Position numbers and translations under genes: made by a program
In this document: positions 24,935 to 32,930 of the stretch, piece after piece
Numbering within the stretch: position 1 is the first letter of the stretch
Layout: every line of letters starts with the position of its first letter
NCBI RefSeq assembly: GCF_013387465.1
Contig: NZ_VYGV01000028.1
Coordinates: 62,001 to 126,000 of the forward strand
DNA length: 64,000 nt
Direction: 5' to 3'
DNA from: Hydrogenophaga aromaticivorans
GTDB taxonomy: Bacteria > Pseudomonadota > Gammaproteobacteria > Burkholderiales > Burkholderiaceae_C
The notes under the pieces: generated by a model
Told to the model about the DNA's origin: nothing
The model's input: only the letters and a program-made list of their open reading frames with translations
The model's database searches: none

Positions 24935-24957
24935 AAGAGGCACGAAGTATATTTCTT
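24935..24957. promoter_or_regulatory. NsrR-like operator at nsrR
   Basis: Arms AAGAGGCA and TATTTCTT are separated by 7 bp, the 8-7-8 spacing of the NsrR consensus (AAGATGCA-N7-TGCATCTT). The left arm has one mismatch and the right arm three. It lies 12 bp upstream of nsrR. Confidence 0.6.
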
Positions 24958-24975
24958 TAAAGGCAGTTTGGGTAT

Positions 24976-24998
24976 AAGATTCATCTCACATACTTCTT
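24976..24998. promoter_or_regulatory. NsrR-like operator at nnrS
   Basis: AAGATTCA-TCTCACA-TACTTCTT has the 8-7-8 spacing, with one and two mismatches to the consensus arms. It lies 48 bp before the chosen nnrS start, and the two sites in this intergenic region are 41 bp apart. Confidence 0.65.
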
Positions 24999-25046
24999 AT
25001 GAGGTCTTCGCAGCGGACCGACGGTCCCTGCAACGCCCACCACACC

Positions 25047-26264
25047 ATGGCCCTCCCCACCTTGCACGCCTCGCCGCCCGAGCCCACCGCCGCGCCACAG
25101 CCCCCGGGCTGGCCGCTGCTGAGGCTGGGATTCCGGCCCTTCTACCTGGGCGCTGCGGTGTTCGCGCTGCTCGCGATTCCCCTCTGGGTGGCGCTGTTCC
25201 TGGGCCAGTGGAACCTCACAATGGTGTTGCCACCGCTGCTGTGGCACGCGCACGAAATGCTGTTCGGCTTCGCGATCGCGGTCATCCTGGGTTTCTTGCT
25301 GACCGCGGTCAAAGCCTGGACGGGGCTGGTCACGCCGCGCGGCGCCTTTCTGGGTGCCCTGGCGCTGTTGTGGCTGGCGGCCCGGGTGGCTGCCGTGACC
25401 GGGCCCTATGCGGTGTACGCCGTGCTGGACCTGGCGCTGCTGCCCCTGGTGGCCGCGGTGCTCACCCATGTGCTGCTGCGCGCGCGCAACCGGCGCAACC
25501 TGCCGCTGGCGGGGATGCTGATGCTGCTCGCGCTGGCCAACGGCTTCTTTCACCTGGGGGTGATCGGCGCCATCGAGATATCCCCGCTGACGCCGTTGTA
25601 CGCCGCCCTGGCCCTGATCGTGATGATCGAGTGCGTGATCGCTGGCCGGGTGATTCCGGCCTTCACCATGAGCGCGACCCCGGGTCTGAAGCTCCAGGTG
25701 CGCGCGCCGGTGGACCGCGCCGCGCTGGCGCTCACCGCGCTGGCCTTGCTGCTGTGGGTGTTGGCGCCGGCCTCGGCGGGCTGGAACATGGTCGGTGGCC
25801 TGGCGTTTTCGCTCGCGGCGCTGGCCCAGGTGGGGCGGCTGCTGCAGTGGCGGCCTGCGCTGACGCGGCACCGCCCGATCCTGTGGATCCTGCATGCGTC
25901 TTACGCCTGGATTCCCTTCGGCCTGGCCTTGCTGGCGGCGGCCCGGTTCGGCTGGGTCGGCGTTTCAGCCGGCGTGCATGCGCTGGCGATCGGTGCCACC
26001 GCCGGTCTCATCATCGGCATGATGACCCGCACCGCCCGCGGCCACACCGGGCGCGCGCTGCAGGTGTCCCGCCCGGAGATCACGGCCTACGTGCTCGTGA
26101 TGCTGGCGGCTGCGGTGCGTGTGCTGCTGCCGCTGGCCGTGCCGCAATGGCTGCCGCTGGCCCTGGTGGTGGCGGCAGCGGCCTGGTCGGTGGCGTTTGC
26201 CATCTACCTCTTCATCTACACCCCCTGGCTGCTCCAGACGCGCTTCGACGGCAAGGACGGCTGA
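25047..26264 (+). CDS. nnrS: NnrS family protein
   Basis: A 405-residue, roughly 12-helix membrane protein of the NnrS family, a haem- and copper-containing protein that lessens nitrosative stress. Family motifs visible are RLGFRPFYLGAAVFALL, LWHAHEMLFGFA with conserved histidines, and MTRTARGHTGR. I chose the ATG at 25047; the in-frame ATG at 24999 directly abuts the operator, and neither has a strong ribosome-binding site. It heads an operon with a DUF2249 gene and a ferredoxin and should be induced by NO through NsrR. Confidence 0.92.
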   Translation: MALPTLHASPPEPTAAPQPPGWPLLRLGFRPFYLGAAVFALLAIPLWVALFLGQWNLTMVLPPLLWHAHEMLFGFAIAVILGFLLTAVKAWTGLVTPRGAFLGALALLWLAARVAAVTGPYAVYAVLDLALLPLVAAVLTHVLLRARNRRNLPLAGMLMLLALANGFFHLGVIGAIEISPLTPLYAALALIVMIECVIAGRVIPAFTMSATPGLKLQVRAPVDRAALALTALALLLWVLAPASAGWNMVGGLAFSLAALAQVGRLLQWRPALTRHRPILWILHASYAWIPFGLALLAAARFGWVGVSAGVHALAIGATAGLIIGMMTRTARGHTGRALQVSRPEITAYVLVMLAAAVRVLLPLAVPQWLPLALVVAAAAWSVAFAIYLFIYTPWLLQTRFDGKDG

Positions 26265-26328
26265 CGCTTTTTTTCATCCCGCTCCGCTTTTTCAACCCAT
26301 CCCTTTTCACCCACCTCAGGACCCGTTC

Positions 26329-30579: not shown

Positions 30580-30581
30580 GC

Positions 30582-31352
30582 TCAGGCCTCCAGCGCGTCG
30601 GCCGCGCGCACAAAGCCGGTCCGCGCGATCTGTTGGGCCAGCGCCAGGTCGCCGGTCTCGGCGATGCAGCCCTGGTCGAGCCGCAGCACCGCGTCGGGCT
30701 GCAGCGACTCGATCAGCTGCAGGTAATGCGAGACCACCACAAAGGCGGTGCCCTGGGCACGCAACGACTGCACCAGCTCAACCACCGCGCGGGTGCCGTC
30801 CACGTCCATGCCCGAATCGATTTCATCGAGCATCGCCAGGCGCGGGCGCAGCAGGGCCAGCTGCAGCAGCTCGTTGCGCTTGCGCTCCCCGCCAGAAAAA
30901 CCATCATTGACGGGGCGCGCCAGCATCGCCTCGGGCAGGCCCAACCGGGTGGCCGCGGCCCGCGCATCGGCCAGGAAGTCGAAGGCGTCGAGCGGCGCTT
31001 CGCCGCGCGCCTCGCGCACGGCGTTCAGGGCCGTGCGGATGAACAGGTTGTTCTTCACGCCGGGGATCTCGGGTGGCGCCTGGAAGGAAACAAACAGCCC
31101 GGCGCGGGCGCGCGCCTCGGGGCTCATGGCCAGCAGGTCCTGCCCGCCAAAGCGGGCCTGGCCACCGACCACGCCGTAGCGCGGATGGCCGGCCAGCGTC
31201 AGGCCCAGGGTGCTCTTGCCGCTGCCGTTGGCGCCCATCAGCACCACCAGCGCACCGGCCGGGACATCGAGCGAGATCGACTTCAACACGTGGCGGCCGC
31301 CAACGTCAACGCGCAGATCGCGCACCTGCAACAGGGGTTCGGCATGGGTCAT
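30582..31352 (-). CDS. sufC: Fe-S cluster assembly ATPase SufC
   Basis: A 256-residue ABC-type ATPase. Visible are Walker A GANGSGKST, signature FSGGERKRNE, Walker B LAMLDEIDSGMD and the H-loop VVSHY, all characteristic of SufC rather than of transport ATPases. The start at 31352 begins the conserved domain at once (LLQVRDLRVDVGG). It follows sufB by 34 bp. Confidence 0.95.
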   Translation of the reverse strand: MTHAEPLLQVRDLRVDVGGRHVLKSISLDVPAGALVVLMGANGSGKSTLGLTLAGHPRYGVVGGQARFGGQDLLAMSPEARARAGLFVSFQAPPEIPGVKNNLFIRTALNAVREARGEAPLDAFDFLADARAAATRLGLPEAMLARPVNDGFSGGERKRNELLQLALLRPRLAMLDEIDSGMDVDGTRAVVELVQSLRAQGTAFVVVSHYLQLIESLQPDAVLRLDQGCIAETGDLALAQQIARTGFVRAADALEA

Positions 31353-31386
31353 GGCGGGTCTTTCCTGATGGATCGTGTGGGTGGGC

Positions 31387-32841
31387 TCAGCCGACAGCGC
31401 CTTCGAGCGAAACGGCCAGCAGCGCCTTGGCTTCGAGCGCGAATTCCATCGGCAGCTCGTCCAGCACCGCCTGGCAGAAGCCACCGACGATGAGGGCGGT
31501 GGCGTCCTGTGGGTGGATGCCGCGCTGCTGGCAATAGAACAGGCGTTCTTCGGAGATGCGGGTGGTGGTGGCTTCGTGTTCCACCAGGGCGTCGTCGCGC
31601 GCGGCCTCGATGTACGGGAAGGTGTGGGCACCGCAGTCGGGGCCGATGAGCAGCGAGTCGCACTGCGTGTGGTTGTGGGCGCCGGCCGCGGTCGGGGCCA
31701 CGCGCACCAGGCCGCGGTAGCTGTTCTGGGCGTGTCCGGCGCTGATGCCTTTGGAGACGATGCGGCTCTTGGTGTTGCGGCCCAGATGGATCATCTTGGT
31801 GCCGGTGTCGGCCTGCTGGAAGTGGTTGCTGACCGCGATCGAATGGAACTCGCCGCGCGAATCGTCGCCGCGCAGCACCACGCTCGGGTACTTCCAGGTG
31901 ATGGCCGATCCGGTCTCGATCTGCGTCCAGGCGATGTGCGAGCGCTGGCCCGCACACAGGCCGCGCTTGGTGACGAAGTTGTAGATGCCGCCACGGCCGC
32001 GTTCGTCGCCGGGGTACCAGTTCTGCACCGTCGAGTACTTGATGTGGGCGTCGTCGTGGGCGATCAGCTCGACCACCGCCGCGTGCAGCTGGTGTTCGTC
32101 GCGCTGCGGCGCCGTGCAGCCTTCGAGGTAGCTCACGTGGCTGCCTTCCTCGGCAATGATCAGCGTGCGCTCGAACTGGCCGGTGTTGGCGGCGTTGATG
32201 CGGAAGTAGGACGACAGCTCCATCGGGCAGCGCACGCCTTTGGGGATGTAGACGAAGGAGCCGTCGGAGAACACCGCCGAATTCAGTGCGGCGTAGAAGT
32301 TGTCGCCCGGCGGCACCACCGTGCCCAGGTAGCGCTCGATCAGTTCCGGGTGGTGTTGCACGGCGTGCGAGAACGAACAGAAGATCACGCCGACTTCGGC
32401 CAGCTGCTCGCGGAAGGTGGTGCCGACGGACACCGAGTCGAACACCGCGTCGACCGCCACCCCGGCCAGGCGCGCCCGCTCGTGCAGCGGCACGCCGAGT
32501 TTTTCGTAGGTCTCCAGCAGCTTGGGGTCCACCTCGGCCAGGCTCTTGGGGCCGTCCTTCTGCGACCTGGGCGCCGAGTAATAGCTCAGGGCCTGGAAGT
32601 CCACCGGCTCGATGCGGAGCTGGCCCCAGTGCGGATGCGGCATGGACTGCCAGCGCTCGAAGGCTGCCAGGCGCCACTGCAACAGGAAATCGGGCTCGCG
32701 CTTGCGGCGCGAGATGGCGCGCACGGTGTCGGCGTCCAGCCCCGGCGGCAGCGAGTCGCTCTCCACGTCGGTGACGAACCCGTGTCGGTAGGACTGCTGC
32801 AACGCCTGGGTCAGCGGCGGTGCTTGTTCAACGGTGGTCAT
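31387..32841 (-). CDS. sufB: Fe-S cluster assembly scaffold SufB
   Basis: A 484-residue SufB with the diagnostic regions [57 protein letters not shown] and [18 protein letters not shown]. It is the first gene of sufBCDSUT and the central scaffold on which the cluster forms. A nearly perfect NsrR-like palindrome lies 59 bp before the start, which suggests that NO, and not only iron or oxidant stress, induces the operon. No iscR gene precedes it. Confidence 0.95.
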
Positions 32842-32899
32842 GGCGGGGCTCCTGCGGCGATGGGGTGCAGCTTCGATGCGCGACCGAACTGAACCCTCT

Positions 32900-32930
32900 T
32901 TTAAAGATGCACAGTGTATGCCTCTTTAAA
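32900..32930. promoter_or_regulatory. NsrR-like palindrome in the suf promoter
   Basis: TTTAAAGATGCA-CAGTGTA-TGCCTCTTTAAA is a 31-bp palindrome with only one mismatched pair in its 12-bp arms. Its core (32904-32926) fits the NsrR consensus AAGATGCA-N7-TGCATCTT with a single mismatch and has the same 8-7-8 spacing as the two sites in the nsrR-nnrS region. Confidence 0.75.

What the first reader, a model, noticed from the sequence alone, without database searches (positions are those of the whole stretch)
24935..32930. Three NsrR-like operators join nnrS and the suf operon into one nitrosative-stress block
nsrR, nnrS, two DUF2249 genes and fdxA face a complete sufBCDSUT operon. Sites with the same 8-7-8 spacing occur at 24935-24957 (nsrR), 24976-24998 (nnrS) and 32904-32926 (sufB). 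The sufB site is the best, with one mismatch to AAGATGCA-N7-TGCATCTT inside a 31-bp near-perfect palindrome. NsrR control of a whole suf operon would mean that NO directly switches on Fe-S rebuilding together with NO resistance; suf is more often under IscR, SufR, OxyR or Fur.
Basis: partly seen in the sequence, partly recalled or inferred. Interest (0 to 1): 0.72.

Follow-up and report, generated by a model that had tools for sequence, protein, structure and literature searches.

The report
NsrR-type operators couple suf to nnrS
In this bacterium and many relatives, the genes that rebuild iron-sulfur clusters carry the same DNA switch site as nitric-oxide defence genes, here right beside them, which suggests that nitric oxide turns both on together; a similar link is already known in E. 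coli.

Summary
The three 8-7-8 palindromes lie where stated. A motif learnt de novo from nsrR promoters of other genomes, with the window and all suf regions left out, ranks them 1st to 3rd in the 64-kb window, the sufB site first. In the 5.6-Mb genome a tolerant pattern finds four places: these three and one between ccoG and a NarX-like kinase. The sufB operator is found in 46 of 47 related suf loci (one genome counted twice) and hardly at all in unrelated ones. Relatives' alignments put the sufB -10 inside the operator, so the likely mechanism is repression by cluster-bearing NsrR, relieved by NO. No IscR, Fur or FNR site stands out at sufB. The suf clade occurs mainly in genomes with nirS or nosZ (37 of 41, against 90 of 358 others). 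In 20 of 47 loci suf is convergent with nnrS and/or DUF2249. The principle is not new: NsrR represses suf in E. coli. New, as far as searched, are the physical block, a suf promoter with no other visible regulator, and the denitrifier association. Two further Rrf2 paralogues exist, so which protein acts at suf is inferred; nothing was tested at the bench.

The parts
24106..24363 (-). DUF2249 protein, downstream of nsrR
   Evidence: PF10006 92.1 bits
24414..24923 (-). nsrR (called NsrR-A here), Rrf2-family repressor with Asp8 and Cys91/99/105
   Evidence: PF02082 120 bits; best NCBIfam equivalog NsrR 124.7 bits, below its cut-off of 182; ligands align with ScNsrR 5n07
24935..24957 (.). second nsrR operator, -34 from nsrR
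   Evidence: 17.8 bits with the nsrR-promoter matrix, rank 3 in the window
24976..24998 (.). main operator of the divergent nsrR/nnrS region, -75 from nsrR, upstream of nnrS
   Evidence: 23.8 bits, rank 2 in the window; -75 or -74 in 21 of 28 training promoters, one of them a noise row
25047..26264 (+). nnrS
   Evidence: PF05940 345.7 bits
26329..26625 (+). DUF2249 protein, downstream of nnrS
   Evidence: PF10006 87.3 bits
26641..26964 (+). fdxA ferredoxin
   Evidence: NF045490 155.9 bits, over cut-off
27008..27553 (-). sufT (start codon chosen by reading)
   Evidence: TIGR03406 225.2 bits, over cut-off
27550..28023 (-). sufU
   Evidence: TIGR01994 144.5 bits, over cut-off
28020..29315 (-). 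sufS
   Evidence: TIGR01979 479.8 bits, over cut-off
29269..30579 (-). sufD
   Evidence: TIGR01981 170 bits, below its cut-off of 222
30582..31352 (-). sufC (start codon chosen by reading)
   Evidence: TIGR01978 300.5 bits, over cut-off
31387..32841 (-). sufB
   Evidence: TIGR01980 599.8 bits, over cut-off
32904..32926 (.). sufB operator, inside the 31-bp palindrome 32900-32930
   Evidence: 27.1 bits, rank 1 in the window; conserved in relatives
32913..32918 (-). putative sufB -10 (TACACT) in the operator centre
   Evidence: TA...T at this place in 42 of 44 distinct clade regions; the consensus promoter scan finds nothing here
32936..32941 (-). putative sufB -35 (TGGTGC, weak in this genome)
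   Evidence: TTG at this offset in 23 of 44 distinct clade regions, next best offset 3 of 44; this genome is not among the 23

Best explanation
24106-32930 is a nitrosative-stress block held by one type of repressor. Cluster-bearing NsrR dimers bind three 23-bp operators: two in the nsrR/nnrS divergent region (autoregulation and nnrS-DUF2249-fdxA) and one at sufB, where the operator covers the -10 hexamer and so blocks RNA polymerase. NO destroys the cluster, NsrR lets go, and NO defence plus the SUF Fe-S assembly operon are induced together, while ISC stays under IscR. Shown here: the operators, their motif identity with nsrR promoters, conservation, gene content, ligand residues. Inferred: binding, repression, NO as signal, IscR control of isc, and that NsrR-A rather than a paralogue acts at suf.
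For: De novo palindromic motif from 28 nsrR promoters of other genomes (window and suf not used): AAGATGCAt-N5-aTGCATCTT. It ranks sufB, 24976 and 24935 first to third in the window at 27.1, 23.8 and 17.8 bits; next 10.6. Four genome places with the tolerant pattern, control 0. sufB operator at 10 bits or more in 46 of 47 clade loci, shuffles 10 of 940 (highest 15.8, exceeded by 44 of 47), other taxa about 2 of 74. 38 distinct site sequences among relatives, with changes matched on both arms, e.g. TTCAT/ATGAA and TGCAT/ATGCA. -10-like hexamer in the operator centre in 42 of 44 and TTG 17 bp upstream of it in 23 of 44. Further NsrR-like promoters of suf genomes carry the motif: 27 of 29 regions at 10 bits or more. 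nsrR-A within 15 kb of suf in 11 of 47 loci, nnrS and/or DUF2249 convergent with suf in 20 of 47, a site of 15 bits or more before nnrS in 17 of 19 evaluable (plus the window). IscR, Fur and FNR matches at sufB at shuffle level. nirS/nosZ association. ScNsrR operators are also 23 bp with a 7-bp centre (passages of PMC9338935). NsrR-A is the only one of the three paralogues whose best NCBIfam equivalog is NsrR.
Against: Two more NsrR/RirA-like Rrf2 proteins in the genome; suf genomes with no close NsrR-A relative keep the sufB operator, so another protein must serve there. The ccoG operator, 2.6 kb from gene B, scores 27.7 bits, so the motif alone cannot separate A from B. NsrR-A is below the NCBIfam NsrR cut-off and scores nearly as well to RirA. 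In 4 of 41 suf genomes no clear NsrR-like protein was found although the operator is there; these assemblies are 85-90% complete or in 840 contigs. L011 has no operator, and two more loci score only 10.2 and 11.1, within the shuffle range. Co-variation of suf and nsrR operators is weak: genome level rho 0.29, p 0.096, 34 genomes; genus level rho 0.73, p 0.007, 12 genera. No consensus promoter at sufB in this genome. In 21 of 47 loci at least 3.8 kb beyond the start of sufT was seen without nnrS or DUF2249, so the block is common, not universal.
Confidence: 0.82

Rival explanations
1. The sufB operator is read mainly by a paralogue: protein B (C2, next to a ScdA/hemerythrin gene and ccoG) or C (C27, next to genes that read as nos accessory genes). 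The neighbour NsrR-A is then only a local nnrS repressor.
For: Many suf-bearing genera have no close NsrR-A relative, yet keep the operator, and their other NsrR-like promoters carry the motif. The strong ccoG operator (27.7 bits) lies 2.6 kb from gene B. B and C are 68% identical to each other and 50-56% to A.
Against: B and C score better to RirA than to NsrR, A the other way round, all below cut-off. The palindromes closest to genes B and C score 15.9 and 13.7 bits against 27.1 for sufB. nsrR-A is within 15 kb of suf in 11 of 47 loci (plus the window). No tree was made; A against B was judged by identity and linkage.
Confidence: 0.3
2. NsrR acts at suf mainly as an Fe-S supply sensor, as IscR does for isc: any cluster shortage leaves NsrR apo and opens suf; NO is only one trigger.
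For: NsrR needs its cluster for tight DNA binding (passages of PMC5411485); SUF would load its own repressor, giving feedback; no IscR site stands out at sufB.
Against: Co-location with nnrS and association with nirS and nosZ point to NO. No expression data.
Confidence: 0.3
3. The palindrome at sufB is bound by IscR or another regulator outside the NsrR group.
For: IscR is Rrf2 family too and controls suf in E. coli (passages of PMC5411485).
Against: The sufB regions score at shuffle level for recalled IscR type 1 and 2, Fur and FNR consensus (the best of 47 regions exceeds the shuffle maximum for type 2, 18 against 17), while the isc promoter of the same genome has a 21 of 25 type 1 match and no NsrR-type site. 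The sufB motif equals the nsrR autoregulatory motif.
Confidence: 0.06
4. Chance similarity or inherited sequence without function.
For: Related genomes are not independent samples.
Against: Operator kept across 14 genera with diverged flanks and both-arm changes; hardly any in unrelated suf loci.
Confidence: 0.03

Closest known systems
E. coli NsrR repression of sufABCDSE
   Same: NsrR represses a suf operon and NO relieves it (passages of PMC8593673, and PMC6950321; the primary paper, Partridge 2009, is not held).
   Different: E. coli suf also answers to other regulators (IscR; Fur and OxyR named in the passages; IHF recalled), and that it is not linked to nsrR or nnrS there is recalled. Here suf is sufBCDSUT in one block with nsrR-nnrS, with no other site detected.
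NsrR regulons of beta- and gamma-proteobacteria (PMC1274295)
   Same: NsrR with nnrS, hmp, norB, nirK; nnrS in some genomes in a possible operon with nsrR (passages).
   Different: 'suf' has no occurrence in that paper's main text.
Streptomyces coelicolor NsrR (PDB 5n07, 7b0c)
   Same: Rrf2 protein, Asp8 and three Cys ligands aligned; 23-bp operators with a 7-bp centre (passages of PMC9338935).
   Different: Its small regulon is hmpA1, hmpA2 and nsrR.
Mycobacterium tuberculosis SufR
   Same: 4Fe-4S repressor of suf that NO inactivates (passages of PMC9045647).
   Different: SufR is encoded within the suf operon (sufRBDCSUT) and is a different regulator from NsrR.
Myxococcus xanthus RisR
   Same: Rrf2 regulator closer to E. 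coli NsrR than to IscR that directs isc and suf (start of abstract; passages of PMC9973013).
   Different: Discussed as Fe-S supply control; not tied to nnrS in the passages seen.

Membership tests
NsrR (Rrf2 family NO sensor) | Rrf2 domain | tested here: met
   PF02082 120 bits, cut-off 30
NsrR (Rrf2 family NO sensor) | Asp8 and three Cys cluster ligands | tested here: met
   Asp8, Cys91, Cys99, Cys105 align with 5n07
NsrR (Rrf2 family NO sensor) | NCBIfam NsrR equivalog assignment | tested here: inconclusive
   NsrR is the best equivalog at 124.7 bits but below cut-off 182; RirA 121.5, also below its cut-off
NsrR (Rrf2 family NO sensor) | NsrR-type operator in its own promoter | tested here: met
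   23.8 and 17.8 bits at -75 and -34
NsrR (Rrf2 family NO sensor) | 4Fe-4S cluster lost on NO, release of DNA | not testable with these tools
   bench assay needed
NsrR regulon member (sufB promoter) | operator matching an independently derived NsrR motif | tested here: met
   27.1 bits, rank 1 in 64 kb
NsrR regulon member (sufB promoter) | operator conserved at the same gene in relatives | tested here: met
   46 of 47 clade loci, window included, L012 and G196 being one genome
NsrR regulon member (sufB promoter) | binding and derepression by NO or nsrR deletion | not testable with these tools
   bench assay needed
SUF system | SufB, C, S, U, T over curated cut-offs, SufD present | tested here: met
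   B, C, S, U, T over cut-off; SufD best model 170 bits, below cut-off 222

The most novel reading that the evidence does not exclude
In this family SUF is not a general stress backup but a dedicated NO-repair arm of denitrifiers: its only switch is NsrR, whose own cluster is built by the system it represses, so NsrR plays for SUF the part that IscR plays for ISC and reports NO damage and cluster shortage as one signal.
Probability: 0.4. Interest if true: 0.66.

Novelty: new variant of a known kind. Interest (0 to 1): 0.52.

Why it matters
Denitrifiers make NO inside the cell, and NO destroys Fe-S clusters. A conserved suf promoter with an NsrR-type operator over its -10 and no other visible regulator is a simple, testable case in which repair of Fe-S proteins is switched by the same signal as NO defence. 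It also offers a reason why SUF is patchy in this family: SUF follows denitrification, while this genome keeps a separate isc operon headed by an IscR gene.

Tried and rejected
IscR type 1 and 2, Fur and FNR control of sufB: recalled consensus strings, 47 clade regions, shuffle level on average, so rejected as visible explanations; degenerate sites could be missed, and OxyR was not scanned. Co-variation of suf and nsrR operators: too weak to identify the paralogue. A sigma-70 consensus scan found no promoter at either region; the -10/-35 claim rests on the alignment. Empty-site comparison for suf in a suf-less congener (G341): no homologue of the window's amidase in the 8.2 kb beyond fdxA, so no insertion boundary could be set. 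Literature: searches for NsrR with suf operon, with nnrS regulon and Comamonadaceae, with sufB and betaproteobacteria, with sufA and ChIP, with RegPrecise and Comamonadaceae, with DUF2249, with sufABCDSE and with Acidovorax listed no paper whose title or abstract start reports NsrR control of suf in this family; only open-licence PMC is covered, and no paper was read whole.

Errors of mine, mended: the nnrS query was in the wrong frame; one search repeats the synteny with the right protein and only that is used for nnrS. One search read 12 reverse-strand loci in the wrong orientation; one search corrects it. In one search nnrS was in the wrong frame (one search corrects it), and protein B was off by one base (one search corrects it). 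In one search, 28 of 29 promoters passed the length filter and one of them (L156) is not a true promoter, so it is noise. The 29 were the best-scoring of the NsrR matches in 166 of 399 genomes, own gene left out.
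Full report
OBSERVATION. The three sites are in the sequence at the stated coordinates. The sufB palindrome spans 32900-32930 with 12 of 15 positions paired; the 23-bp core has one mismatch to the ideal site. The genes are as described: NsrR-like Rrf2 protein, NnrS (PF05940), two DUF2249 proteins (PF10006), FdxA, and SufB, C, D, S, U, T. Among the suf products only SufD is below its curated cut-off. The suf operon runs towards nnrS-DUF2249-fdxA (convergent).

MORE THAN CHANCE. In the whole genome (G000, 5,633,231 bases) AAGANGYATN5ATRCNTCTT with up to two mismatches occurs at four palindromic places: the three sites and C2:152579, between ccoG and a NarX-like kinase; the reversed control gives none. 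This pattern was shaped after seeing the sites. A looser one, AAGATKCAN7TGMATCTT with up to three mismatches, gives 31 places against 8 in its control and misses 24935. So an independent test was made. A palindromic motif was learnt without supervision from promoters of NsrR relatives in other genomes (29 best hits, 28 used, one of them noise; window and all suf regions left out). It came out as AAGATGCAt-N5-aTGCATCTT, at -75 or -74 in 21 of 28. Scanned over the 64-kb window it ranks sufB first (27.1 bits), 24976 second (23.8) and 24935 third (17.8); the fourth place has 10.6. So the sufB site is found by a motif that never saw suf.

CONSERVATION. SufB was sought in 399 genomes of the family: 59 have a match at E 0.001, 41 of them (own included) a SufB at least 83% identical. 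46 of 47 score at least 10 bits, median 22.5, against 10 of 940 shuffles; 44 of 47 exceed the highest shuffle (15.8); L011 fails, L115 (10.2) and L108 (11.1) are weak. Of 9 of the 13 more distant family members 2 reach 10 bits, and of 74 suf loci of other taxa about 2, none above 10.5. The flanks differ and the arms change together. These genomes are related, so the counts are not independent samples; the 41 cover 14 genera.

PROMOTER GEOMETRY. In 44 distinct upstream regions, the hexamer in the operator centre reads TA...T in 42, and TTG stands exactly 15 bp before the operator in 23 (mean over offsets 1.1, next best 3), a 17-bp spacing to that hexamer. The operator therefore most likely covers the -10 of sufB, the place for a repressor. 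In this genome the -10 is TACACT and the -35 is weak (TGGTGC); a strict consensus scan finds no promoter.

WHICH REGULATOR. The genome has IscR (TIGR02010, over cut-off), followed by genes that read as iscS, iscU, iscA, hscB, hscA and fdx, and three NsrR/RirA-like proteins: A (window), B (C2, beside a ScdA/hemerythrin protein), C (C27, beside genes that read as nos accessory genes); a fifth, marginal Rrf2 match lies in a 456-aa frame on C4. A keeps Asp8 and three cysteines of the solved NsrR. A fits NsrR best (124.7 bits, RirA 121.5); B and C fit RirA better (130.2 and 129.1, NsrR 113.2 and 107.2); all are below cut-off. The palindromes nearest to genes B and C score 15.9 and 13.7 bits, but the ccoG operator, 2.6 kb from gene B, scores 27.7, so linkage and family fit, not the motif, favour A at suf. 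Many suf-bearing genera have no close A relative and keep the operator; their other NsrR-like promoters carry similar, often paired sites: 27 of 29 regions from suf genomes and 2 of 5 from suf-less congeners reach 10 bits. A against B was judged by identity and linkage; no tree was made. Co-variation between suf and nsrR operators was weak at genome level (rho 0.29, p 0.096, 34 genomes) and clearer at genus level (rho 0.73, p 0.007, 12 genera). So 'an NsrR-type regulator' is well supported, 'this NsrR' moderately. In 4 of 41 genomes no clear NsrR-like protein was found (85, 89, 90 and 99% complete, in 10, 820, 370 and 840 contigs).

OTHER REGULATORS. IscR, Fur and FNR consensus matches upstream of sufB are at shuffle level on average in the 47 regions (the best region exceeds the shuffle maximum for IscR type 2, 18 against 17), whereas the isc promoter of this genome has a 21 of 25 IscR type 1 match and no NsrR-type site. 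The consensus strings were recalled, and degenerate sites may be missed.

ARCHITECTURE AND ECOLOGY. With the window, 20 of 47 clade loci have nnrS and/or DUF2249 convergent with suf; in 6 of the other 27 the sequence ends before or within 1.9 kb of the start of sufT, and in 21 at least 3.8 kb beyond it was seen without them. Of 19 evaluable nnrS promoters 17 have a site of 15 bits or more; L010 and G178 do not. nsrR-A lies within 15 kb of suf in 11 loci (corrected frame, plus the window). Some of these nnrS promoters are the same DNA as nsrR promoters in the training set. The named Acidovorax facilis record L007 keeps the full block; a congener without suf (G341) keeps nsrR-nnrS-DUF2249-fdxA with the paired operators. 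None of the four sampled congeners has suf. nirS (PF02239) or nosZ (PF18764) occurs in 37 of 41 clade genomes against 90 of 358 others. At genus level, any member counting, nosZ occurs in 13 of 14 suf genera against 26 of 127, and nirS in 12 of 14 against 40 of 127; the own genus counts for nirS through suf-less members. No phylogenetic correction was made. The own genome has nosZ and no nirS match; nirK was not sought.

WHAT IS KNOWN. NsrR represses suf in E. coli (passages of PMC8593673 and PMC6950321). The NsrR regulon paper on beta- and gamma-proteobacteria (PMC1274295, passages) has no occurrence of suf. M. tuberculosis SufR is another NO-sensitive suf repressor (PMC9045647, passages). 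ScNsrR operators are 23 bp with a 7-bp centre (PMC9338935, passages), the same 8-7-8 layout.

VERDICT. Observation confirmed and interpretation supported by comparative sequence evidence; mechanism not tested at the bench. A new variant of a known regulatory link.

Noticed in passing
L088:1501-1523 (G000 C2:152579-152601): A fourth strong NsrR-type operator (27.7 bits) lies between ccoG (FixG-type Fe-S protein) and a histidine kinase with PilJ, HAMP, GAF and HisKA_3 domains, read as NarX-like; Rrf2 gene B is 2.6 kb away.
   Followed up: partly
L233:2119-2141 and L233:3655-4221 (G000 C27): Rrf2 gene C sits beside genes that read as nos accessory proteins and an ApbE-like protein, with a weak palindrome (13.7 bits) nearby; denitrification may have its own regulator of this kind here.
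   Followed up: partly
L131-L137 and L139: In a distant suf clade of the same family (SufB 65-70% identical) an Rrf2 gene, 36-48% identical to NsrR-A, stands beside suf, in most with a DUF2249 or fdxA gene, but the sufB operator is mostly missing (2 of 9 loci reach 10 bits).
   Followed up: partly
24935-24998 and relatives L007, L184, L186-L188; L247-L256: nsrR promoters of the A type carry paired operators 40-41 bp apart; several NsrR-like promoters elsewhere in other genomes carry pairs 32-33 bp apart.
   Followed up: partly
L225 (G354): nnrS-DUF2249 lies about 6 kb from suf with a second sufT-like match just before it, as if a piece had been inserted between sufT and DUF2249.
   Followed up: no
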